Source of the DNA: a virus
Virus record (IMG/VR): IMGVR_UViG_3300031232_000038
Location: 1 to 20,186 of that record
Reading direction: 5' to 3' (one strand)
DNA: 20,186 bases
Positions 4,241-20,186 of the stretch are shown here, in pieces. The position numbers and the translations under genes were made by a program. The notes under the pieces were generated by a model. It did not search any database. It saw nothing but the letters and a program-made list of their open reading frames with translations, and was not told the DNA's origin. Within the stretch, counting starts at the first letter, position 1. Each line of letters begins with the position of its first letter.

Positions 4241-6445
4241 TTATGCCGCCTTTGCCGCTTCCGCAGCCTTGTTTTCTGCCGATGCTCTCACCATGAACTG
4301 GTGATAGTTGCCCTGCCATCCCTTCACACCGTAGTGTCCAAAGGTGGCATTCGGGTAAATCCAGCCCTCTACACCAATTGCAGCCATGCGCCGGCCGAAC
4401 ACGCGATCCTCGCCCCAGCGCAGGGATAGACCTTCCTCGTTCAGTTCGCGCTGACAGGTGAAGAATTCGATGTACTTGCGATCAGGATAGGACGGGTCGG
4501 CGCCCATGTCGTGGTACACATAGTCCGGGTACGCATCGCGGTAGGCTTCCAGAGCCTGGCGCTTGATCCTGATGAATCCTCCGGCCAGATACGCAGCCTT
4601 GATCAGTGCTGAACCGTCCTGCAGGATGCGCCCGACTGGATGCTGGCGCCCGTCCTGCGTCTCCAGTACCGGCCTGGCTGTGTACACCTCCCACTGGTTC
4701 TTTTGCGGGTAGCTGCCCATCACAATCGGTTCCGGCAGCATCAGGAAGTCCACCACTGAGCGCGGCTCCCACTGCATGTCCGAGTCGATCATGAACAGGT
4801 CAGTCGCGTCCGGGTCTTCCAGGAACCGGCAGAACAGGGTGTTTTTCGCCCGATCCACGTAGCTATCACCAGACAGCTCCCAGAACTCGTGTTCGATACC
4901 CATGCGGGTCAGTTGCTGGATGGTCCCGCACAGGGATGCGATATACGGACTGAAGCCGCGCATCTCATAGAACGGTGTCATGATGATCACCTTCATGCGG
5001 GGCTGGTAGTACGGGAGCCGCGCATCGTGATATCGTTGCTTCAGCTTCCGTCCCTCTTCGACCGAAAGCAGGGACTTGTTTCCGTCGTGAATCCGCGTGT
5101 GGGTCAGATTCTCCTCGATAACCTTGATGTTCTCGCGCTGCAACAGGCGCAGATACATCTCGTAATCAGTCAGCACACCATGTGAGGCTTCCCAGCCGCC
5201 CACGTCCAGCAACACCTGCCTGCGGTACATGCCCACGCCGAAATACTGGTTTCCGTAGTAGAGCTGCTGCAGCCATACCTCGCGTGGCTTGTTGCTGGCC
5301 TTCAGGATGTGCTTGAACGGGTGATCCGCCTCGAACGGCTTGCCCTCTGCATCAATGAAGTCTGTCTGCGTGGCCACGAATTCCAGCCATGGATCATTCT
5401 TGAACTCGGCAAGCATCTTCTCAATGGCGTTCGGCTCCAGCACGTCATCAGCTGCCAGACTCACATAGAAATCACCTGTGCCAGTCGCAGCCATCTGGTT
5501 GATGGCCGCCACTGTGCCTCGGTTCTCGTCGAACTTGAGATACTTGATGCGCGGATCCGCAAAGGTCTGAATGACAGCCTCTGTCCCGTCCGTGCTGGCA
5601 TCGTTCAGCACCAGTATTTCCAGATCCTGATAGGTCTGGCTGATCACACTCGAGATGGCGCTGGCCACGAACTTGTCCATGTTGTAGACCGGAATCCCCA
5701 CCGTGACCTTCCCTGACGTGGGCGGGAAGTCCAGGCTGTGCAGGGTCCGCACATAGGCCATGTCTGACTGGAATTTCTCTGCCTGTCCCTCGTGAGGAGC
5801 GGTCAGTCGCGTATCTGGCTGGTCTGCATCGGCCCAGCGATACGGCAACACCACGCCATCATGCTTCTTGAAGAACCTTACAAACCATTCAAGGTCAGAC
5901 GGACCGAAGATGGCAGGGTCAAATCCGCCAATGTCCATGTAGGCGGTACGGCGCATGAGCATGGAGGCTCCGCCGATTGGAATGTTTTCGAGGTTGAGTA
6001 GTGTCCTGATCCAAGCTTCACGTGACCGGTTGTGAGCGCGGTACGCAAACTGCTGCCACGTCGGGACTGCGCCCCAGCCTTCCGCTTGTTTGCCAGGTAT
6101 GCCCCATACGCAGTCGATATTCGGATGCGAGTCGAGATATGAGACTTGATCTTCGAACTTACCCGGCTCGATCCACTCGTCAGCCGAGAGCGGTTGCAAA
6201 TATTCCCCTGCTGCGTTCTCAAGCGCCCAGTTAAGACCATGTGGAATCCCCTTGTTCTGTTCAAAGCGATGTAATTTGATGCGCGGATCATTGAACTCCG
6301 CGACCACTGCGGCGATATCTTCGGTGGAGCCGTCATCAACCAGCACGAGTTCCCAATCCTCGAAGGTCTGCGCACGCACGCTACCGATCATCCGCTTGAG
6401 ATAGTCGGTCTGGTTCAGAACTGAGGTACAGACGGAAATTTTCAC
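4241..6445 (-). CDS. Three-domain glycosyltransferase (two GT2 domains plus a third GT-A-like domain)
   Basis: This is a 734-aa protein starting at GTG 6445, which overlaps the GroES-like stop (GTGA). GGAG lies about 11 bases upstream. Domain 1 (about 1-235) is GT2-like, with SVLNQTDYLKRMIGSV, LVDDGST at 35-41 and ADEW at 88-91 where a DxD-type motif is expected. Domain 2 (about 246-470) is a second GT2 domain with TVGIPVYN, NDASTDGT at 281-288, AADD at 331-334 and TDYEM as a possible catalytic acid region. Domain 3 (about 484-715) has MTPFYE, an IDSDM motif at 553-557 and WGEDRVFGRR at 677-686. The C-terminus is Ala/Lys-rich. No membrane segment is visible, so it should act in the cytoplasm. 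Glycosyl donor and acceptor are unknown. Its location inside the virion operon suggests a virion protein, but modification of a host surface glycan is possible. Confidence 0.85.
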   Translation of the reverse strand: MKISVCTSVLNQTDYLKRMIGSVRAQTFEDWELVLVDDGSTEDIAAVVAEFNDPRIKLHRFEQNKGIPHGLNWALENAAGEYLQPLSADEWIEPGKFEDQVSYLDSHPNIDCVWGIPGKQAEGWGAVPTWQQFAYRAHNRSREAWIRTLLNLENIPIGGASMLMRRTAYMDIGGFDPAIFGPSDLEWFVRFFKKHDGVVLPYRWADADQPDTRLTAPHEGQAEKFQSDMAYVRTLHSLDFPPTSGKVTVGIPVYNMDKFVASAISSVISQTYQDLEILVLNDASTDGTEAVIQTFADPRIKYLKFDENRGTVAAINQMAATGTGDFYVSLAADDVLEPNAIEKMLAEFKNDPWLEFVATQTDFIDAEGKPFEADHPFKHILKASNKPREVWLQQLYYGNQYFGVGMYRRQVLLDVGGWEASHGVLTDYEMYLRLLQRENIKVIEENLTHTRIHDGNKSLLSVEEGRKLKQRYHDARLPYYQPRMKVIIMTPFYEMRGFSPYIASLCGTIQQLTRMGIEHEFWELSGDSYVDRAKNTLFCRFLEDPDATDLFMIDSDMQWEPRSVVDFLMLPEPIVMGSYPQKNQWEVYTARPVLETQDGRQHPVGRILQDGSALIKAAYLAGGFIRIKRQALEAYRDAYPDYVYHDMGADPSYPDRKYIEFFTCQRELNEEGLSLRWGEDRVFGRRMAAIGVEGWIYPNATFGHYGVKGWQGNYHQFMVRASAENKAAEAAKAA

Positions 6446-6747
6446 TGTTCAATAACTCCTATCAGGGACCCTTCCCGCAACACGACAAACTCTTCGCCGT
6501 TGATGTTGGTGATCTGGTGTCCGTTGGTTGAAAATAACACCTTGTCCCCCACCTTCACGGCAGGGGGCGCAGTGTGCTGGGTCTTGCAGGTCTTGCAGCC
6601 GTAAGTCTTGCCGTTACCCACCGCGGTCACGACTCCGATGTCCTCGCGGAAATCAGGGTCGTAGACCAGATGGATACCGCCATCCGACACCTCTTGAGGT
6701 GCCGAACGGCGGATGACAACGACATCGCCCAGAGGGGAGATGTTCAT
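6442..6747 (-). CDS. Phage-encoded GroES-type co-chaperonin
   Basis: This is a 101-aa protein with the Cpn10 layout: MNISPLGDVVVIRR, a glycine-containing mobile-loop region with GGIHL (residues 23-27, matching the GGIVL that docks on GroEL), GVVTAVGNG, VKVGDKVLF, and a closing block EEFVVLREGSLIGVIE. An insert carrying CKTC (Cys51 and Cys54) extends the region corresponding to the roof hairpin. It should cap the host GroEL ring and allow folding of a phage protein, as T4 gp31 does for its coat protein. It starts at ATG 6747 (ATGA overlap) and ends in the GTGA overlap with the glycosyltransferase gene. It lies just after the coat gene, so the coat protein is the obvious candidate substrate, by inference. 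Confidence 0.88.
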   Translation of the reverse strand: MNISPLGDVVVIRRSAPQEVSDGGIHLVYDPDFREDIGVVTAVGNGKTYGCKTCKTQHTAPPAVKVGDKVLFSTNGHQITNINGEEFVVLREGSLIGVIEQ

Positions 6748-6979: not shown

Positions 6980-8176
6980 TTAACCTCCTAACCTTACGCC
7001 AAGTTCATCGTAGTACACGGTCGAGCCGTACAGGATGTCAATACGAGTCGGGAAGACATCGTTATTGATATCGTACGCACGGATCACCCGCATGCTGATA
7101 TTGCGGTACGTCTCGCGGGCCGCGAAGTCCACACCCTGCGGAATCTCCATCGGGACCATGACCAGACCAATCGCATCACGCGTGAATGCAGCGTTGTGAG
7201 GCGTTGCGATCTGCGCCGAGGTCGTACCCGTCAGGAACGTGACACCCGCACCAGTCGAGGCCGGGCCGGTCACGTTCTGGTACGGACCAGAGGTGACGAT
7301 GGCCGGGCTGAACGTTGCGGTCCAGGTGGATGACGTGGGCGTAGTGCTGGCAGTGATCACGAAGTTCTTCAGGACGCCGGTTGACTGACGAGACTGAGGA
7401 TTGACGTTGAACACACCGGCCACTGTGAACACTTCGCCTGCCTGGATGGTTTCCGTCGCCGTGCCACCAAAGAAACCGATGGACGTGCCGGAACCTGCCG
7501 CGGTCGTGACGACCATGGCGACCGACGTGTTGTGCTGCGCCGATGCCTGTTGCTGGATGTTCTGGTCCATGTAAATCTCGTAATTGCCGAGAGTCGCAAG
7601 GTAACCCTTGACCAGTGCATCCTTGGCGGTCGGCATCACGAACGAACCGACCTGACCGGCAGCCATCGACCAGTACGCATTCGGGTTCAGGACCAGAGTG
7701 CGATTGTCCTGCGGGGCCGCGTTGTCATCCATCCGACGTCCGACCAGCTGTACCGAGGATGAGAAGGCAGACGGCGTGACACCCGGCGTGCCCACGTAGT
7801 TGCTGAAACTGAACACGTTGGTCAGCACGTCGAAGTCGATCTGGTTCGCCAGCGAAGCCATCGAGGGCTTGAGGTAGCGTTCCGAGAACTCCTCGACGGT
7901 CAGCGTCAGGTCTTGCGACGTGAACTGGAAGTCAACGTGTTTCTGGTTGTTGATCGTGATCGTGACAGACGGCTCAGCGATGTTCTGCACCTGCAGGCCA
8001 GCACCACTCGCCACCGTGAACCGGTTCGGCTTGCGGATCGTGAGCTGGTTGCCGATCTTCACGAACTGATTTTCGAATTTGCGGTTAACCCTGTTGGCCG
8101 CAACTAAGTTGTTTTCGAGTATGACCAAGCTTTCCTTGGTGATCACACTCGGGGTTAGCAATACCTGGGAGGACAT
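6980..8176 (-). CDS. Major capsid (coat) protein, P22 gp5 family
   Basis: This is a 398-aa protein of the P22 coat family (HK97 fold). Family-type features are the N-arm ESLVILENNLVAANRVN, the strand IGNQLTIRKPNRFTV, and SVTITINNQKHVDFQFTSQD followed by EEFSERYLKPSM. The last approximately 80 residues contain RDAIGLVMVPMEIP, RVIRAYDINND and RIDILYGSTVYYDELGVR. The middle (about 225-310) is Thr/Ser/Gly-rich and beta-strand rich, as expected for the inserted I-domain region. P22 coat is 430 aa. CAGGAG lies eight bases before ATG 8176, a good site for a highly expressed protein. It follows the scaffold gene, as in P22. Confidence 0.92.
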   Translation of the reverse strand: MSSQVLLTPSVITKESLVILENNLVAANRVNRKFENQFVKIGNQLTIRKPNRFTVASGAGLQVQNIAEPSVTITINNQKHVDFQFTSQDLTLTVEEFSERYLKPSMASLANQIDFDVLTNVFSFSNYVGTPGVTPSAFSSSVQLVGRRMDDNAAPQDNRTLVLNPNAYWSMAAGQVGSFVMPTAKDALVKGYLATLGNYEIYMDQNIQQQASAQHNTSVAMVVTTAAGSGTSIGFFGGTATETIQAGEVFTVAGVFNVNPQSRQSTGVLKNFVITASTTPTSSTWTATFSPAIVTSGPYQNVTGPASTGAGVTFLTGTTSAQIATPHNAAFTRDAIGLVMVPMEIPQGVDFAARETYRNISMRVIRAYDINNDVFPTRIDILYGSTVYYDELGVRLGG

Positions 8177-8191
8177 TATCTAAACTCCTGT

Positions 8192-9154
8192 TCAGTGCCT
8201 TGCGTTGGCTCGCTTCTCGCGTTCGCGTCGGTACTGAGCGTACTCATCCATGGACATCTCGTCCGGGGACTTGGACACACTCTCGGAACCTGACGTAACG
8301 GGTCGAATCGGTTTCGGCGCGGCTGATATAGGGGGCTTGGGCTGGGCTGGCTCGCGTAGCTTTGCCGAGATCAATCCAAGTTCCATGAGCTGTAGGGGCG
8401 GTGAGAGTTGCATGATGCGTGCAGCCTCATTCGGATTCTTGCCGAGGTAGTATTGAATGTCCGGCCCATCTGGTGCATTGATGATGGCGTGTGCCATTGG
8501 TATGGAGACCTGAACATCTGGCGTCTCAGCGACTTCAGCGAAGTCGGGGTACTTTTCCATGACCTTCGATTTCCTGCCTGTGTAGGCTTCACGCGCTGCC
8601 CTCTCGCCCGCCTCAATGGCATCCTGCTGGGCTTTCGCCTGCATCTCTGCCTGGGCACGCACGATCTCCCGCTTGGCTGTCCACGTTGCCTTTTCCTCGA
8701 CGTATGTTTCCATCGCCAAGTCATACGCATCGGGGTCGGGATAATCGTTCTTGGAGGGCTTGACCGGTACCGGGTCCGTCTCGACTGTCTCTGACCTGCG
8801 GTCGGCCTGCGGCTGTTCACCACGGGTCTCCAACAGGGCCAGCAATCGAAGCTTCTCGGCCTTTTCTGCCTCGTACTGAGACTTTGCTTCCTCTCGTTGC
8901 TTCACCAGCTCGTCTAGTCGTTTCTGAACACCTCGGGCCTTTTTAGGCTCGGTTGTCTCGGATGGACTCTCCGGGGACTCTGCCGACTCGTCCTCTGTTT
9001 TGCCTTCCGTTTCGGGGACTTCCTCGTCCTCTACAACGTCAGGCGCGGCAATAGAATCTGGTTTTGTCTCTATGACTGGCAGATCAGACGTAGATGACAA
9101 AGCCGGACCCTGCTGATCCAGTATGTCGATGACTTGTTCCTTGATGATGTCCAT
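8192..9154 (-). CDS. Capsid scaffolding protein, P22 gp8-like
   Basis: This is a 320-aa, highly charged and mostly helical protein. Residues 1-75 are very acidic and Ser/Thr/Pro-rich. Residues about 76-115 form a Lys/Glu coiled-coil segment (KRLDELVKQREEAKSQYEAE). A second helical stretch covers about 150-205 (REIVRAQAEMQAKAQQDA). The C-terminus is a short basic helix, DEYAQYRREREKRANARH, like the coat-binding helix-turn-helix of P22 scaffold. Scaffold copolymerises with coat into the procapsid and leaves before or during DNA packaging. The gene lies immediately before coat. AGGAG precedes ATG 9154, and its TAG overlaps the end of the repeat-protein gene. Confidence 0.86.
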   Translation of the reverse strand: MDIIKEQVIDILDQQGPALSSTSDLPVIETKPDSIAAPDVVEDEEVPETEGKTEDESAESPESPSETTEPKKARGVQKRLDELVKQREEAKSQYEAEKAEKLRLLALLETRGEQPQADRRSETVETDPVPVKPSKNDYPDPDAYDLAMETYVEEKATWTAKREIVRAQAEMQAKAQQDAIEAGERAAREAYTGRKSKVMEKYPDFAEVAETPDVQVSIPMAHAIINAPDGPDIQYYLGKNPNEAARIMQLSPPLQLMELGLISAKLREPAQPKPPISAAPKPIRPVTSGSESVSKSPDEMSMDEYAQYRREREKRANARH

Positions 9155-9163
9155 GTATGGCTC

Positions 9164-10621
9164 CTAAAGTAAGTGGGCTATGACCGCAATGATCTCTTCT
9201 TCTTCCTGCTGTTCCTCAACACGTCTGGCGACTTCCTGTTTCCACTCACGACGAGCATCAGCACGTACGACGCCAGAAACACGTTGAATAAGCTGCTCGA
9301 ACTCCTGCCGCAGTTCCTTGACCACTGGCGCAGGCTTGGGCAGCGTGAGGACGGCCTCGACAGCCTCCTCGATAATCTCCTCAATCTCGTCGCATTCCTC
9401 ATCATCACACCCGTACTCGTCACGATATCTCCACCAGAACGGACCACCACCGCGTGGCGGTGCTGGCTGATCTGCTGGTTGCTGCTGAGTTTCGAGAGTA
9501 AATGCAGGCTGGTCTGATCCTTCCGTGACGATCCAGTCCGCAGTGATGCCGTTGACCGCACTGAGCAACCAGACTGCGTTGTCCTGACCTTCACTTGCAT
9601 TCCATGTGAGCAGATCAGATGCAGTGATATTCCACGCGGGAACGTCCTGACCTTCTGTTGCTGCCCATGTGATGAGAGTGGGCGAGGTAGCGGTGAGCGT
9701 CCAGACCGGCAGATCCTGCGCTTCTGTGCTGTTCCAGGCTGCGTTGACTGATGCTTCGAGAGTCCACTGCGCATTGTCAGCGCCTTCCTGAGCATCGACT
9801 GTGACCGATACGCCATTGATGTGGATGAGCTGCCAGGCTGCGTTATCCTGTGCCTCTGTGCTGTCCCAAGTGACTGCATCACTGAGGTTGACTGTCCATG
9901 CTGGGACGTCTTGTCCTTCAGTTGCATTCCACGCAACACCAAGGGACAGATTCGCTGTCCATGCTGCGTTGTCGGCGCCTTCTGTTGCGTTCCAACTGAC
10001 TTGAACCGATGCTGCAAGGGTCCAGGCTGGTACGTCCTGACCTTCAGTCGAGTTCCATGCAACGGCATCGGACAGGTTGACAGTCCACGCAGGGACGTCA
10101 GCACCCTCTGTGCTGTTCCAAGTAACGTTGTCAGTGCTGGTAAGCGTCCAGGCCGGAACGTCTGCGCCTTCAGTCGCTGACCAGTTGACAGTGACCGTTG
10201 CGCCAGCAGTAACCGTGACTTGCCAGTTAGGCGTGTCCTGCCCTTCAGTGCTGTTCCAGGCGACTGGATCACTTGCATTGAGCGTGAATGCTGGGCTGTC
10301 TTGGCCCTCTGTGCTGTTCCAGGCAACGCCGAGCGAGAGGCTGGCAGTCCATGCGGGAACGTCCTGACCTTCGGTTGCGTTCCAGGTAACGTTGTCGCGT
10401 ACCGTGAGCGCGAATGCAGGGACATCAGCGCCCTCTGTTGCATTCCAGGTTGCGGTGACGGTTGCAGTCGAGACACTGACAGCCCACGCTGCATTATCTC
10501 CGCCCTCCGTAGCGTTCCATGTGATGGTCGGAGTCGTTGCACCGGCTGGAGGTTGCTCGAATAGACCAATCGAACCCGCTCCAATTGGTCCATATCCTAG
10601 ATTTGGGCCTGAGCGTGCCAT
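9164..10621 (-). CDS. Virion-operon protein with 16 tandem W-N-x-T-E-G-x-D repeats
   Basis: This is a 485-aa protein with three parts. Residues 1-32 are Gly/Pro-rich (GPNLGYGPIGAGSIG). Residues 33-378 consist of 16 repeats following W-N-[AS]-T-E-G-[QA]-D-x-P-A-W and then about nine beta-prone residues. Most successive Trp positions (59, 80, 101, 122; then 147, 168, 189, 210, 231, 252) are exactly 21 residues apart. Longer steps of 23-25 occur at a few places. Residues 383-485 have a Pro linker, GGGPFWWRYRDEYG, a very acidic segment with CDDEEC, and a charged helical tail that ends in EEQQEEEEIIAVIAHLL. No signal peptide or membrane segment is seen. It lies between the fibre-like gene and the scaffold gene. 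I infer a beta-rich fibre or decoration protein with a helical anchoring or multimerising tail. I do not recognise a characterised family. Confidence 0.85.
   Translation of the reverse strand: MARSGPNLGYGPIGAGSIGLFEQPPAGATTPTITWNATEGGDNAAWAVSVSTATVTATWNATEGADVPAFALTVRDNVTWNATEGQDVPAWTASLSLGVAWNSTEGQDSPAFTLNASDPVAWNSTEGQDTPNWQVTVTAGATVTVNWSATEGADVPAWTLTSTDNVTWNSTEGADVPAWTVNLSDAVAWNSTEGQDVPAWTLAASVQVSWNATEGADNAAWTANLSLGVAWNATEGQDVPAWTVNLSDAVTWDSTEAQDNAAWQLIHINGVSVTVDAQEGADNAQWTLEASVNAAWNSTEAQDLPVWTLTATSPTLITWAATEGQDVPAWNITASDLLTWNASEGQDNAVWLLSAVNGITADWIVTEGSDQPAFTLETQQQPADQPAPPRGGGPFWWRYRDEYGCDDEECDEIEEIIEEAVEAVLTLPKPAPVVKELRQEFEQLIQRVSGVVRADARREWKQEVARRVEEQQEEEEIIAVIAHLL
9488..10525 (-). repeat. 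Tandem 63-bp coding repeat array (16 units, partly diverged)
   Basis: The DNA coding the WNxTEGxD repeats is itself a recognisable tandem array with a 63-bp basic period and a few longer units. The most recurrent + strand core is the complement of TEGQD/VPAW (for example gggacgtcctgaccttc and close variants). Units are diverged, with no two neighbours obviously identical. This suggests an old array rather than a recent slippage product. Unit number could change by recombination. Confidence 0.85.
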
Positions 10622-10624
10622 TCA

Positions 10625-11839
10625 TCAGTTATCCGACTCTTGGTAAATACTGATGATGGTGAGCGACATAGCGGCGGTACTCACTGAGAACATGTTCTTC
10701 ACTGCTCTCCAGCTCAACAACGTGTCAGCACTGACCACCACCGATGATCCGCCTGAATACACTTTGGTCGTGTACGTATCCGTGTTGATGTTGTACAACG
10801 TCATCGCCAGCGTATTGCTGGACGTCGCTGGAGCGAACATCGTCAGCTCATAACCCTGATTCGTGGTCTGCGCAGGGAATGCAGCTCCAAGATTCAATGC
10901 TGGTCCTGTCGATGATCCATTGCAGAACATCTGCCAATTGGCAAATGAACTCATCTGCACAATGCCAAAGGTATTCACGAACGTCGTGTTACCGAAATTA
11001 GTTCCCAGAGTTGGTGCCAAATTCGTGCTGGACATTCCCACAAATGCAACGCCAGTGGACATTGGCGTCGTATTGCCGTCCTGTATGCCAAAACGAATAT
11101 CCACCCAGAATCCACCACTTCTTGAACCGTCACCCGTTGTCAACTGGCTCAGGTTCTGCACGATTGATACCTGACTGGATGCGGCCCCGGTCGTGCCAAA
11201 TCCAATACGACGCATCCTCGTGTAAATGTTCGTCGTTGCAGTCGCCTGACTGCTGACAGTTCCCGCCGTACCTGGCGCGACCATGCCGAACACGCCCGGC
11301 ACCACCGTGGAATCGCCACCAGGGTTATAGAAGCCGATCTTGTTCGTTGCCATGAACGGCTGCAGTCTGGATGTCAGTCCGGACGGGCCACGCGTTGCAA
11401 GAAATGCCCTGTTTGCAAGCTCAGTTATAAACACGGCAGTCGAATTGTTCCCTGGCGCCGATGGGAATCCACCCTCAAGGTTCGGGAAGATCAGATCATT
11501 GTCCACTGACCAGTAAGGAGTACGTGCTGCAATCTGGGACATGGCAACGTAGGTCGTACCTGCCGGGAAGTTGACCGCTGCATTGCTGCTGCTGCTCTCA
11601 TAGACGGTCGTGCGCGTGACAGTGCTGTTCCCGTACGTGCCCATCCCTGACTCCCAGTCACCGCTGGGAACCCCGTTTGCATCCACTTGCCAGACAGAGT
11701 ACGGGAAGGTATCGGTGCTGGCACACACTGACGAGAACTTGCGGAAGCCCGCTATCCCCGTAGTTCCAAGCAGAGTGAGGACACCTGTCCCAGCAGTGGT
11801 ACAGATTTCCATCACCCGGTCATGAAACTGCTCAGCCAT
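10625..11839 (-). CDS. Tail-fibre-like virion protein with putative C-terminal receptor-binding domain
   Basis: This is a 404-aa protein. Residues 1-107 match a recurring phage fibre/appendage N-terminal pattern: DRVMEICTTAGTGVLTLLG, FSSVCASTDTFPYSVW, the GxGTYGNSTVTRTTVYESS block, and FPAGTTYVAMSQIAAR. Comparable modules attach fibres or spikes to the virion. The remaining approximately 295 residues are rich in Ser, Thr, Gly and Phe and strongly beta-strand prone. They include RSGGFWVDIRFGIQD and a C-terminal SWRAVKNMFSVSTAAM segment, suggesting a lectin-like sandwich. No endosialidase, pectate-lyase or chaperone motif is obvious. ATG 11839 directly abuts the TAA of the 132-aa gene. The stop lies three bases before the repeat-protein ATG. 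Fibre identity is likely; the target receptor is unknown. Confidence 0.7.
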   Translation of the reverse strand: MAEQFHDRVMEICTTAGTGVLTLLGTTGIAGFRKFSSVCASTDTFPYSVWQVDANGVPSGDWESGMGTYGNSTVTRTTVYESSSSNAAVNFPAGTTYVAMSQIAARTPYWSVDNDLIFPNLEGGFPSAPGNNSTAVFITELANRAFLATRGPSGLTSRLQPFMATNKIGFYNPGGDSTVVPGVFGMVAPGTAGTVSSQATATTNIYTRMRRIGFGTTGAASSQVSIVQNLSQLTTGDGSRSGGFWVDIRFGIQDGNTTPMSTGVAFVGMSSTNLAPTLGTNFGNTTFVNTFGIVQMSSFANWQMFCNGSSTGPALNLGAAFPAQTTNQGYELTMFAPATSSNTLAMTLYNINTDTYTTKVYSGGSSVVVSADTLLSWRAVKNMFSVSTAAMSLTIISIYQESDN

Positions 11840-12238
11840 TTACGGATTGCCTTCTGTGATCTTGGCCGAGGTGATCGTGACCGTCACGCCCGAGGTAAGG
11901 ACGTTAGTGTTCAGGATGAAATCAGCCGCTGCTGTGGACACCGAATAATCAGCGATGAAAGTTCCTGAGCTGGTCTGATGTCTCGCCCATGTCGCAGTCG
12001 AGCTGAACACGGCAGTCGTGGTCCACACAGCAGGAGAGGTGCTGTTGACCAGCAGAATCGCTGACGTGGCTGGCTGGGCGAACGTGCTGGACATCTGGAA
12101 CGATGCCAGCACAACGGTCGAGGTTCCGCCCGTTGCCGGTCTTGTCCCTGCGTAGATGGTAACGAGTGAGAGCGCACCGGATGTGTTCGTGATCCGGTCC
12201 ATGCGTTCGTTTCTGAGTGCTACGGCATACCCTGGCAT
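11840..12238 (-). CDS. Small beta-rich virion structural protein, unknown function
   Basis: This is a 132-aa protein, starting at ATG 12238 with TAGGAG upstream (the TAG is the portal stop). It contains AVALRNERMDRITNTSGALS, then IYAGTRPATGGTSTVVLASF and a C-terminal TSGVTVTITSAKITEGNP. An ALRN.RLD.I...G....IY.GTRPATGGT...L pattern ending in ...SAxITEGN is shared by many small phage proteins encoded with head or tail structural genes. I know no assigned biochemical function for them. Strand-rich composition and position between portal and the fibre-like gene suggest a virion component, perhaps a decoration or neck protein. Confidence 0.68.
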   Translation of the reverse strand: MPGYAVALRNERMDRITNTSGALSLVTIYAGTRPATGGTSTVVLASFQMSSTFAQPATSAILLVNSTSPAVWTTTAVFSSTATWARHQTSSGTFIADYSVSTAAADFILNTNVLTSGVTVTITSAKITEGNP

Positions 12239-14605: not shown

Positions 14606-14825
14606 TTGTCACCTCATGCGGAGGCATACGCTGGCTCATGCAGCCCAGCACGTAGTCCTTGAATGCTTCCCTGCGCGTGCGCAGCTTGGACGCTGGGCCT
14701 GATCCTGGCACTCGTGCGCTGTACGAGCCTTCGGGCGTCGTAGCCATCAACGTGATCACAGGTTCATCCTCCCAGACGTCATATTCCTCGTACTCAAGGA
14801 ACCGCACATGGAATGTTTCGATCAT
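14598..14825 (-). CDS. Hypothetical small protein between terminase and portal
   Basis: This is a 75-aa acidic-then-basic protein with no family I can name. ATG 14825 overlaps the large-terminase TGA (ATGA). A GTG at 14834 would add three residues but is not coupled, so the ATG is preferred. The N-terminal half is rich in aromatic and acidic residues (FHVRFLEYEEYDVWEDEP). The middle reads TPEGSYSARVPGSGPASKLR, and the C-terminal part is likely helical (RREAFKDYVLGCMSQ). It is embedded in an overlapping terminase-portal cluster, so a role in packaging or portal assembly is possible. This is positional inference only. Confidence 0.6.
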   Translation of the reverse strand: MIETFHVRFLEYEEYDVWEDEPVITLMATTPEGSYSARVPGSGPASKLRTRREAFKDYVLGCMSQRMPPHEVTIG

Positions 14826-16141
14826 CCCATCCACAGTGCGGACTCCTCTGATTTGCTGTAGCTGATGATGCGTACCTGTTCCTTGGCTACCCTTGGCTTG
14901 GCAAACTTGTGCCCGACAGCCAGTTGCATGAATGCATCAGCACCGTTCGATGCCCAGTCGTGGTACGGCTCATCACTGAATGCTTTGCGCTTGTCATTCC
15001 ACTCGTAGTGATAGCTGACCAGCGCATCCCGGCCACGCTCGGTCTTCTTGCGGTCGAAGTAGCACCTGGCAATGAATGACCGGCCAGCGTTGATCTGGCT
15101 CTGCTTGTCCAGCTTCTCGGTGATGCGGAACTGCAACCCGAGCTGTGCAGCCACATCACGCGTGGACTTGCCACCCGCAGCAAACTGATGCGCTTCCAGG
15201 TCATGCGGTCCATTGTGAGTGCCCCACACATAGGGCATGTTCTGCAGGTGCTTGACGTAGTGATCAATGCCCACGCCTGCGCCCGAGTTCTCGTAATAGT
15301 CGATCACATGAATCTCACGCCCGATGGTCTGCGTGAACCAGATGGCGGTCGGATCACCAGTGCCAATATCCCACCAGGTATCGACAGGCATGTCAGGCTG
15401 CCATGGGACGCCACATACTCGACCATCGTTGTCAGCATCCTGCATGGCCTTGCCGAACACTGAGCCAGACTGCACGCCCATGAACGAGCAATAGAACTCC
15501 TGCTGAATCATATCCTCGGTCATGCCTGAATTGCGCTCAGCCTCGATGTCTGCATCGGTCAGGACCTTGGTATCGTTGATCGTCAGCACCTCAGCGAACC
15601 AGTCAGGATTGTTCTTGGCCATCTCGTACAACGTGTAGCCGTGATTCTTGCCGCGTGGCGTGTAATCGAAGATGGCCCAGCCGCCGTTCTCACGCAGGAT
15701 CGGGCGGATGTAGTCCCACGCTGCAGGGTCTTGCAGTGAATACTCTCTGAACACATTCCCAATGGGATTCGTGCCCATGATCGAATCGTAATTGTCCGTA
15801 CCCACCAGCTGGAAGGCTGAACCGTTGACCAGCTCGATGCGCAGGTCTGACTCGTTCTTTTTCTTGATGATCTCTTTCGGAAAGTGATCCATGAACCTGA
15901 AGCCTGATCCGTCCCGGCCATCCCACAAAACACGCTTGGCCTGGGCAAAGGTGGGGAACAGGTAGAAATACGTTCCCACGCGCCTGAAAGCTTCCTTGGC
16001 GCAGTAGTTCACGAATGTCTTTTCCTTGCCAGCCCGGCGGTGCCAGACCGTGACAGCACGTTTGCAGCCGTTGTCTAGGGCTTTCAGGACAGGGAGCTGG
16101 TAGAAGCGTGGCTCGAAATTATGTGGAAGTAGGACTTCCAT
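14822..16141 (-). CDS. Terminase large subunit (packaging ATPase/nuclease)
   Basis: This is a 439-aa protein. The N-terminal ATPase has a Walker A-like VWHRRAGKEKT at 32-42, a region GNVFREYSLQDP at 128-139 that holds the candidate Walker B/catalytic acidic residues, and the motor motif IFDYTPRGKNHGY at 157-169. The C-terminal nuclease has acidic residues at WWDIGTGDPTA (256-266), HVIDYYEN (278-285) and DWASNGADAF (395-404). This is the usual three-site RNase H-like pattern. It cuts concatemeric DNA and pumps it into the procapsid. ATG 16141 lies inside the small-terminase gene (23-base overlap). The TGA overlaps the next ATG. Confidence 0.94.
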   Translation of the reverse strand: MEVLLPHNFEPRFYQLPVLKALDNGCKRAVTVWHRRAGKEKTFVNYCAKEAFRRVGTYFYLFPTFAQAKRVLWDGRDGSGFRFMDHFPKEIIKKKNESDLRIELVNGSAFQLVGTDNYDSIMGTNPIGNVFREYSLQDPAAWDYIRPILRENGGWAIFDYTPRGKNHGYTLYEMAKNNPDWFAEVLTINDTKVLTDADIEAERNSGMTEDMIQQEFYCSFMGVQSGSVFGKAMQDADNDGRVCGVPWQPDMPVDTWWDIGTGDPTAIWFTQTIGREIHVIDYYENSGAGVGIDHYVKHLQNMPYVWGTHNGPHDLEAHQFAAGGKSTRDVAAQLGLQFRITEKLDKQSQINAGRSFIARCYFDRKKTERGRDALVSYHYEWNDKRKAFSDEPYHDWASNGADAFMQLAVGHKFAKPRVAKEQVRIISYSKSEESALWMG

Positions 16142-20104: not shown

Positions 20105-20186
20105 TACCGTGGCCGGGTCCGGGTACGGGGCCGGGGACGGGGACGGGTCCGGGTACGGGGACGGGTACGGGTACGGGTACGGGTCC
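20097..20186 (+). CDS. Gly-X-Gly-X repeat phage protein, partial (C-terminus beyond window)
   Basis: This frame opens at ATG 20097 (MSNTVAGSGYGAGDGDGSGY, then a run of GDGYGYGYGS) and is still open at the window end after 30 codons. It overlaps the preceding gene by eight bases. GAGG lies about 10-12 bases upstream (in gaggcta/atgagggcacATG). Proteins beginning MSNT followed by Gly-Tyr/Asp/Ser alternation are common in phage early regions, with no known function. The third codon bases are mostly G or C, and Gly is always GGG here, so DNA and protein repeats coincide. The length is unknown because the window stops inside the repeat. Confidence 0.68.
   Translation, partial: MSNTVAGSGYGAGDGDGSGYGDGYGYGYGS
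20108..20186 (+). repeat. Hexanucleotide GGG-NNC microsatellite-like array at window end
   Basis: From 20108 the sequence repeats with a 6-base period as GGG followed by TCC, TAC, GCC or GAC. It becomes more uniform (GGGTAC x3) at the right edge. It codes for the Gly-X repeats. Such an array can vary in unit number and can break short-read assembly, which may explain why the sequence stops here. Confidence 0.8.

What the first reader, a model, noticed from the sequence alone, without database searches (positions are those of the whole stretch)
9164..10621. 16-repeat WNxTEGxDxPAW protein in the virion operon
About 70% of the protein is 21-residue repeats, each predicted to be two short strands with an EG-x-D turn and two conserved aromatic positions. 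The acidic turn residues could bind cations. A charged helical tail with CDDEEC follows. The spacing is very regular, and I know no characterised family with this signature. It may be a beta-repeat fibre or capsid decoration.
Basis: partly seen in the sequence, partly recalled or inferred. Interest (0 to 1): 0.62.

Follow-up and report, generated by a model that had tools for sequence, protein, structure and literature searches.

The report
Phage beta-repeat adhesion-fibre stalk protein
A virus that infects bacteria carries a protein made of 16 copies of a 21-residue unit, predicted to stack into a thin rod; the same unit recurs (4-36 copies) in many unrelated bacterial viruses, nearly always beside a gene related to a small protein that binds attachment fibres on a virus tail, so it is most likely an adjustable-length stalk of the attachment machinery.

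Summary
A 485-residue ORF on the minus strand (10621 to 9164) carries 16 E[G/A]xD repeats; 10 of 15 intervals are exactly 21 residues, the rest 23-25. It lies in a P22-type head operon between portal and scaffold/coat. No significant Pfam, NCBIfam, PHROG or PDB sequence match exists. It belongs to a large unnamed family of 21-residue 'GTLAATEaxDtAAFaG' repeats (572 distinct units collected, 4-36 copies per protein, mostly metagenomic viral contigs, plus Rhizobium and Curvibacter phages). The window clade is a Trp-rich variant. The deeper model (51 sequences, pLDDT 67) gives two strands per repeat and resembles curlin and other parallel beta-solenoids. The key context: a phrog_3758 gene lies within 5 kb in 37 of 42 loci, against 8 for the next neighbour family; its profile matches a 141-residue protein, most likely the garland protein, in the tail-fibre structure of Agrobacterium phage 7-7-1 (PDB 9RKV). 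Between the two genes in the window is a fibre-like protein. Best reading: a length-variable beta-solenoid stalk in a mobile host-adhesion module, anchored through garland/connector dimers. Capsid decoration remains possible but is less supported. No virion proteomics or experimental structure was available.

The parts
9164..10621 (-). repeat-protein gene, 485 aa, ATG at 10621, 3 nt after the stop codon of the upstream gene (probable translational coupling)
10523..10621 (-). residues 1-33, short N-terminal string MARSGPNLGYGPIGAGSIGLFEQPPAGATTPTI, candidate anchor
   Evidence: anchoring is inference
9476..10522 (-). residues 34-382, array of 16 repeats (period 21, a few of 23-25), predicted two-strand beta-solenoid
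9167..9475 (-). residues 383-485, Pro-rich linker, predicted charged helices, acidic-hydrophobic end EEEEIIAVIAHLL
10625..11839 (-). fibre-like protein, 404 aa: N-terminal part resembles a putative tail fibre of phage CRP-603, C-terminal phrog_13925 domain
11840..12238 (-). phrog_3758 protein, 132 aa, homologue of the 141-residue (garland) protein of phage 7-7-1
12251..14605 (-). P22-type portal (context)
14822..16141 (-). terminase large subunit (context)
8192..9154 (-). scaffolding protein (context)
6980..8176 (-). P22-type coat protein (context)

Best explanation
The protein is an elongated virion component of the phage's host-adhesion apparatus. Each 21-residue repeat is one strand-turn-strand rung; 16 rungs stack in parallel into a two-sheet beta-solenoid rod of roughly 8 nm (assuming about 4.8 A per rung), and adding or losing rungs changes its length without changing its fold. 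The near-invariant E and D line one edge of the rod as ladders, probably neutralised by bound cations or by hydrogen bonds. The short N terminus is proposed to be gripped by dimers of the garland/connector-type protein encoded upstream (11840-12238). The fibre-like protein in between (10625-11839) would be the receptor-binding partner, and the helical, acidic-hydrophobic C terminus a capping or oligomerisation element. Shown: the repeats, their family, the gene linkage, and homology of the neighbour to a protein solved in a tail-fibre complex. Inferred from models: the solenoid fold. Inferred only: presence in virions, the anchoring route, cation binding and the stalk function.
For: Fixed 21-residue period across unrelated phages: 473 of 604 intervals. 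Gene order terminase / portal / phrog_3758 / others / repeat / scaffold / coat is shared with the divergent P22-type phage L031. The phrog_3758 plus repeat pairing also occurs in an HK97-type phage (L026), siphophage P26059A and Rhizobium phage TM3_14A. phrog_3758 is within 5 kb in 37 of 42 loci, next family 8; it ends within 2.2 kb upstream, same strand, in 30 of 34 testable loci. phrog_3758 profile to 9rkv_A E 7e-8, hhalign 95.8% to gp103 of phage 7-7-1; 9RKV is the tail-fibre entry, in which garland dimers contact both fibre types (PMC12796354). Milano garland proteins have the fold of connectors that tie receptor-binding proteins to the baseplate (PMC10811340). Reference phages place phrog_3758 by baseplate/tail-fibre or minor-tail genes and phrog_13925 after a tail gene. 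Relatives fuse the repeats to Gly_rich_2, TIG or Tail_P2_I domains. Fold. A 63-nt in-frame unit difference, with purifying selection, omega 0.14-0.16.
Against: Both models have limited confidence (pLDDT 47 and 67), and the curlin match has rmsd 8.8 A, so the solenoid could be a modelling default for beta repeats. In P22-type phages the module sits among head genes, and PHROGs files phrog_3758 under 'head and packaging'. No virion proteomics was found for any member. The garland assignment of chain 9rkv_A rests on matching lengths and copy numbers. No oligomer could be modelled.
Confidence: 0.58

Rival explanations
1. Capsid decoration or head fibre: the same kind of rod, but attached to the capsid surface.
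For: In the window, L031 and L039 the gene lies between portal and coat genes. PHROGs calls phrog_3758 a head protein. Phage 7-7-1 also has capsid fibres of unknown composition.
Against: The conserved partner is a homologue of a tail-fibre (garland) protein and lies by baseplate, fibre or minor tail genes in reference phages. A relative is fused to Tail_P2_I.
Confidence: 0.22
2. Trimeric fibre shaft that is not a monomeric solenoid: three chains intertwine, and the 21-residue unit is a beta-spiral or hairpin shaft repeat.
For: Phage fibres are commonly trimers; model confidence as a monomer is only moderate.
Against: The known triple beta-spiral repeat is about 15 residues (established knowledge); the monomer models resemble parallel solenoids.
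Confidence: 0.12
3. Not an adhesion part: an internal, ejected or morphogenetic protein, or a non-virion protein carried in the operon.
For: No proteomics is available; the gene lies next to the scaffold gene.
Against: Linkage follows the fibre-associated partner across phage types and not the scaffold; adhesin-like and tail domains are fused in relatives.
Confidence: 0.08

Closest known systems
Unnamed repeat proteins of Rhizobium phage RHph_TM3_14A (EVB41_008) and Curvibacter phage P26059A (gp7, matched by phrog_38872)
   Same: Same 21-residue E-x-x-D repeat (hhalign 96.4% and 96.5%), downstream of a phrog_3758 gene
   Different: Other residues in place of Trp, other N and C termini, other phage types; both annotated hypothetical
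Curlin CsgA (PDB 8ENQ, 8C50)
   Same: Top structural match; about 22 residues and two strands per rung in the predicted model
   Different: No curlin Pfam match and different conserved residues; rmsd 8.8 A or more; no sign of amyloid function
Garland proteins of Agrobacterium phages 7-7-1 (gp103) and Milano (gp125/gp127)
   Same: 7-7-1 gp103 is a homologue of the upstream neighbour, not of the repeat protein itself; Milano was not compared here
   Different: Those are baseplate-bearing myophages and no 21-residue repeat protein is described in them
RTX beta-roll
   Same: Parallel stacked turns with conserved acidic turn residues; RTX chains appear among the fold matches (Z about 7)
   Different: No GGxGxD nonapeptide and no RTX Pfam match

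Membership tests
Unnamed 21-residue TE-x-x-D phage repeat family (described here) | 21-residue period with near-invariant E and D three residues later | tested here: met
Unnamed 21-residue TE-x-x-D phage repeat family (described here) | phrog_3758 gene nearby | tested here: met
   gene at 11840-12238
Curlin repeat proteins | curlin repeat sequence profile | tested here: not met
   no curlin match in Pfam up to E 1
Curlin repeat proteins | two-strand parallel beta-solenoid fold | tested here: inconclusive
   top match 8ENQ E 2.5e-3, Z 13.2, rmsd 8.8, model pLDDT 67
RTX repeats | GGxGxDxUx nonapeptides | tested here: not met
   sequence and no Pfam match
RTX repeats | calcium bound in the turns | not testable with these tools
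   needs purified protein
Triple beta-spiral fibre shaft (adenovirus type) | repeat of about 15 residues | tested here: not met
   period is 21
Triple beta-spiral fibre shaft (adenovirus type) | trimeric assembly | not testable with these tools
   only monomers can be predicted here
Garland/connector family (for the neighbour 11840-12238) | sequence homology to a structurally located garland protein | tested here: met
   profile of 36 members to 9rkv_A E 7.3e-8, hhalign 95.8%; chain identified as 7-7-1 gp103; that this chain is the garland protein is inferred from residue counts
Garland/connector family (for the neighbour 11840-12238) | homodimers bound to tail fibres in the virion | not testable with these tools
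   reported for 7-7-1 in PMC12796354, not for this phage
Virion structural protein | present in purified particles | not testable with these tools
   no proteomics found in the papers searched

The most novel reading that the evidence does not exclude
Unrelated tailed phages share an undescribed, swappable host-adhesion cassette: a garland/connector dimer plus a length-adjustable, cation-stapled two-strand beta-solenoid stalk whose flexible N terminus is the 'string' threaded through the garland-type dimers, a role whose occupant is unidentified in phage Milano.
Probability: 0.25. Interest if true: 0.75.

Novelty: new variant of a known kind. Interest (0 to 1): 0.55.

Why it matters
It gives a definable repeat family and a functional context to hypothetical proteins in dozens of viral contigs. 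It suggests that a garland/connector protein, seen in structures of Agrobacterium myophages, is widespread and genetically tied to one repeat architecture in podophages, siphophages and others. The repeat is simple and length-variable, so the relation between stalk length and attachment can be tested directly. It also suggests what kind of extended chain could hold garland dimers together.

Tried and rejected
Pfam, PHROGs and NCBIfam with the protein: nothing significant. PDB by sequence, single protein and repeat profile: no credible match (best E 0.021 to Cam1). Two scans of the bacterial and archaeal genome collection: patterns matched but no locus was confirmed; this may reflect masking of Ala-rich sequence and does not show absence. 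Plasmids and a consensus repeat stretch against phages: no match. Full-length AlphaFold with 4 sequences: pLDDT 47, used only for secondary structure and as weak support. First repeat alignments shifted register and were replaced by a gapless 51-row alignment. The C-terminal domain has no detectable homology outside the clade. A conserved CxxxxC: rejected, absent in L006. Literature searches for the repeat sequence: no paper. A general-synteny explanation for the phrog_3758 neighbour was considered and rejected by the neighbour census. Relatives cannot be drawn for a virus record.

Full report
WHAT IS THERE. The ORF is real and lies on the minus strand, 10621 to 9164, 485 residues, starting 3 nt after the upstream stop codon. 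Residues 34-382 hold 16 units of the form TWN[AS]TEG[QA]D[VN]PAWTxxxSxxV. Spacings are 21 in ten of fifteen intervals, otherwise 23 to 25. Shuffling the same residues gives on average 0.54 E[GA]xD motifs, never more than 5 in 5000 trials; autocorrelation peaks at 21, 42 and 63. A Pro-rich linker and a charged helical region ending EEEEIIAVIAHLL follow. The CDDEEC cysteines are absent from relative L006.

SURROUNDINGS. Everything from terminase to coat is on the same strand: terminase (phrog_2), P22-type portal (Pfam 3.6e-181), phrog_3758 protein, a 404-residue protein with a phrog_13925 C-terminal domain, the repeat protein, scaffold (phrog_8865) and P22-type coat (Pfam 1.3e-35). The record is a 20,186-base virus contig with no cellular genome behind it.

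CLOSE RELATIVES AND SELECTION. Seven IMG/VR loci carry near relatives. L004 has 17 repeats through one clean 63-nt in-frame difference. Omega for the repeat gene is 0.14-0.16, so the sequence is under purifying selection; the phrog_13925 protein is only 49% identical between the window and L006 while the portal is 95%, as would be expected of a receptor-binding part.

A LARGE UNNAMED FAMILY. Searches with repeat alignments and with one repeat segment brought in many further viral contigs. 42 non-redundant proteins carry 4 to 36 repeats. Outside the window clade 473 of 604 intervals are exactly 21. In 572 distinct units E is 94% (D 6%); the D three residues later was part of the motif used to collect units, so its 100% is by construction. 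A gapless alignment of 51 five-repeat segments also shows D invariant and E over 90%, but those segments too were chosen with a score that rewards E and D. The family consensus is GTLAATEAADTAAFAG; the window clade replaces L by W at E-4 and F by W at E+7. Reference phages contain it in Rhizobium phage RHph_TM3_14A and kin and in siphophage P26059A of Curvibacter. No family library names it; one PHROG of unknown function (phrog_38872) matches P26059A gp7.

MODULARITY. N and C termini vary freely: Gly_rich_2 domain (L048, 3e-12), TIG (L017, 7e-16), fusion to Tail_P2_I (L020, 1e-12), or short strings. The window's G-aromatic-x-x-I-G-x-x-x-I-G start is shared by three otherwise different members and by none of 696 other ORFs; the pattern was chosen after inspection, so this is weak. 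Several members end in an acidic cluster followed by hydrophobic residues.

THE PARTNER GENE. A phrog_3758 homologue is within 5 kb on the same strand in 37 of 42 loci; the next most common neighbour family occurs in 8. It ends within 2.2 kb upstream in 30 of 34 loci that have enough upstream sequence, and the four exceptions also have it, three further upstream and one just downstream. The pairing occurs in P22-type (window, L031, L039), HK97-type (L026, L029), P26059A and Rhizobium phages. The profile of 36 members hits PDB chain 9rkv_A (E 7.3e-8) and 44nx_B (2e-4). 9RKV is the tail-fibre model of Agrobacterium phage 7-7-1 (PMC12796354). The matched chain is the 141-residue gp103, encoded next to the 587-residue fibre gp102. 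Three copies of the 587-residue fibre, six of a 286-residue short fibre and four of 141 residues sum to 4041, against 4038 residues reported for that model, so the 141-residue chain is most likely the garland protein; this identification is an inference. In that paper garland dimers contact both fibre types. In phage Milano, garland proteins have the fold of T4 gp8 and A511 gp105, connectors between receptor-binding proteins and baseplate, and what serves as their 'string' is unknown (PMC10811340). Elsewhere phrog_3758 lies between baseplate and tail-fibre genes (Vibrio phage CKB-S1) and after minor tail genes (Mycobacterium phage Charlie). phrog_13925 matches the C-terminal part of the protein after the GTA TIM-barrel gene in RcKemmy, and an N-terminal stretch of the window protein resembles a putative tail fibre of CRP-603 (E 6e-4).

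FOLD. Full-length with 4 sequences: pLDDT 47, two strands for nearly every repeat. Five repeats with 51 sequences: pLDDT 67, pTM 0.55, ten strands. Best PDB match is the CsgA fibril (Foldseek E 2.5e-3, TM 0.38; VIA Z 13.2 but rmsd 8.8); the others are mostly parallel beta-helices at Z 6-9, a range that can be generic. The full-length model aligns with a long CsgA and with the Sf6 tailspike. Best viral match is a 182-residue model (A0A7S5QUV3) at TM 0.76, rmsd 2.7; its length and 34% identity fit the Rhizobium phage protein. A parallel two-strand solenoid is therefore the leading but unproven fold.

MECHANISM. Most likely the protein is a rigid stalk of the attachment apparatus, tied to the virion by garland/connector dimers, with length set by repeat number. 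Capsid attachment is the main rival, because in the P22-type phages the cassette sits among head genes.

NOVELTY. Beta-solenoid phage adhesins are known; this repeat family and its pairing with a garland homologue were not found described in the libraries and open-access papers searched. It is a new variant of a known kind.

Noticed in passing
window 4241-6445 (-): 734-residue protein with two GT2 glycosyltransferase stretches (TuaG-like, 1.9e-38) inside the virion operon; the repeat protein has 19 N-x-S/T sequons against 4.6 expected after shuffling.
   Followed up: partly
window 6442-6747 (-): GroES-like co-chaperonin (1.6e-16) downstream of the coat gene.
   Followed up: no
L006 3-806 against window 14822-16141: The L006 terminase is very different from that of the window except for nearly identical last residues (QVRIISYSKSEESALWMG), with the portal 95% identical: a mosaic exchange junction.
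   Followed up: no
window 20113-20186: Tandem 6/18-nt repeat at the contig end, possibly an assembly artefact.
   Followed up: no
L079 4334-4765 (phage 7-7-1 gp105): Second garland-like paralogue beside gp103 (hhalign 95.7%), separated by gp104, which has a Pro-rich N terminus and might correspond to Milano gp126.
   Followed up: partly
C termini of the repeat proteins of L026, L029, L031, L039, L048, L057, L059, L066 and of P0001: Acidic cluster followed by a hydrophobic end (for example DDDEAVVAWLLAA, MDDEETLLLAA, HDDEEALMMLI) in otherwise dissimilar tails; some resemble ssrA-type LAA ends.
   Followed up: partly
L026 7148-7890: Two adjacent phrog_3758 genes directly before the repeat gene, which is followed by a collagen-like tail fibre gene.
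   Followed up: no
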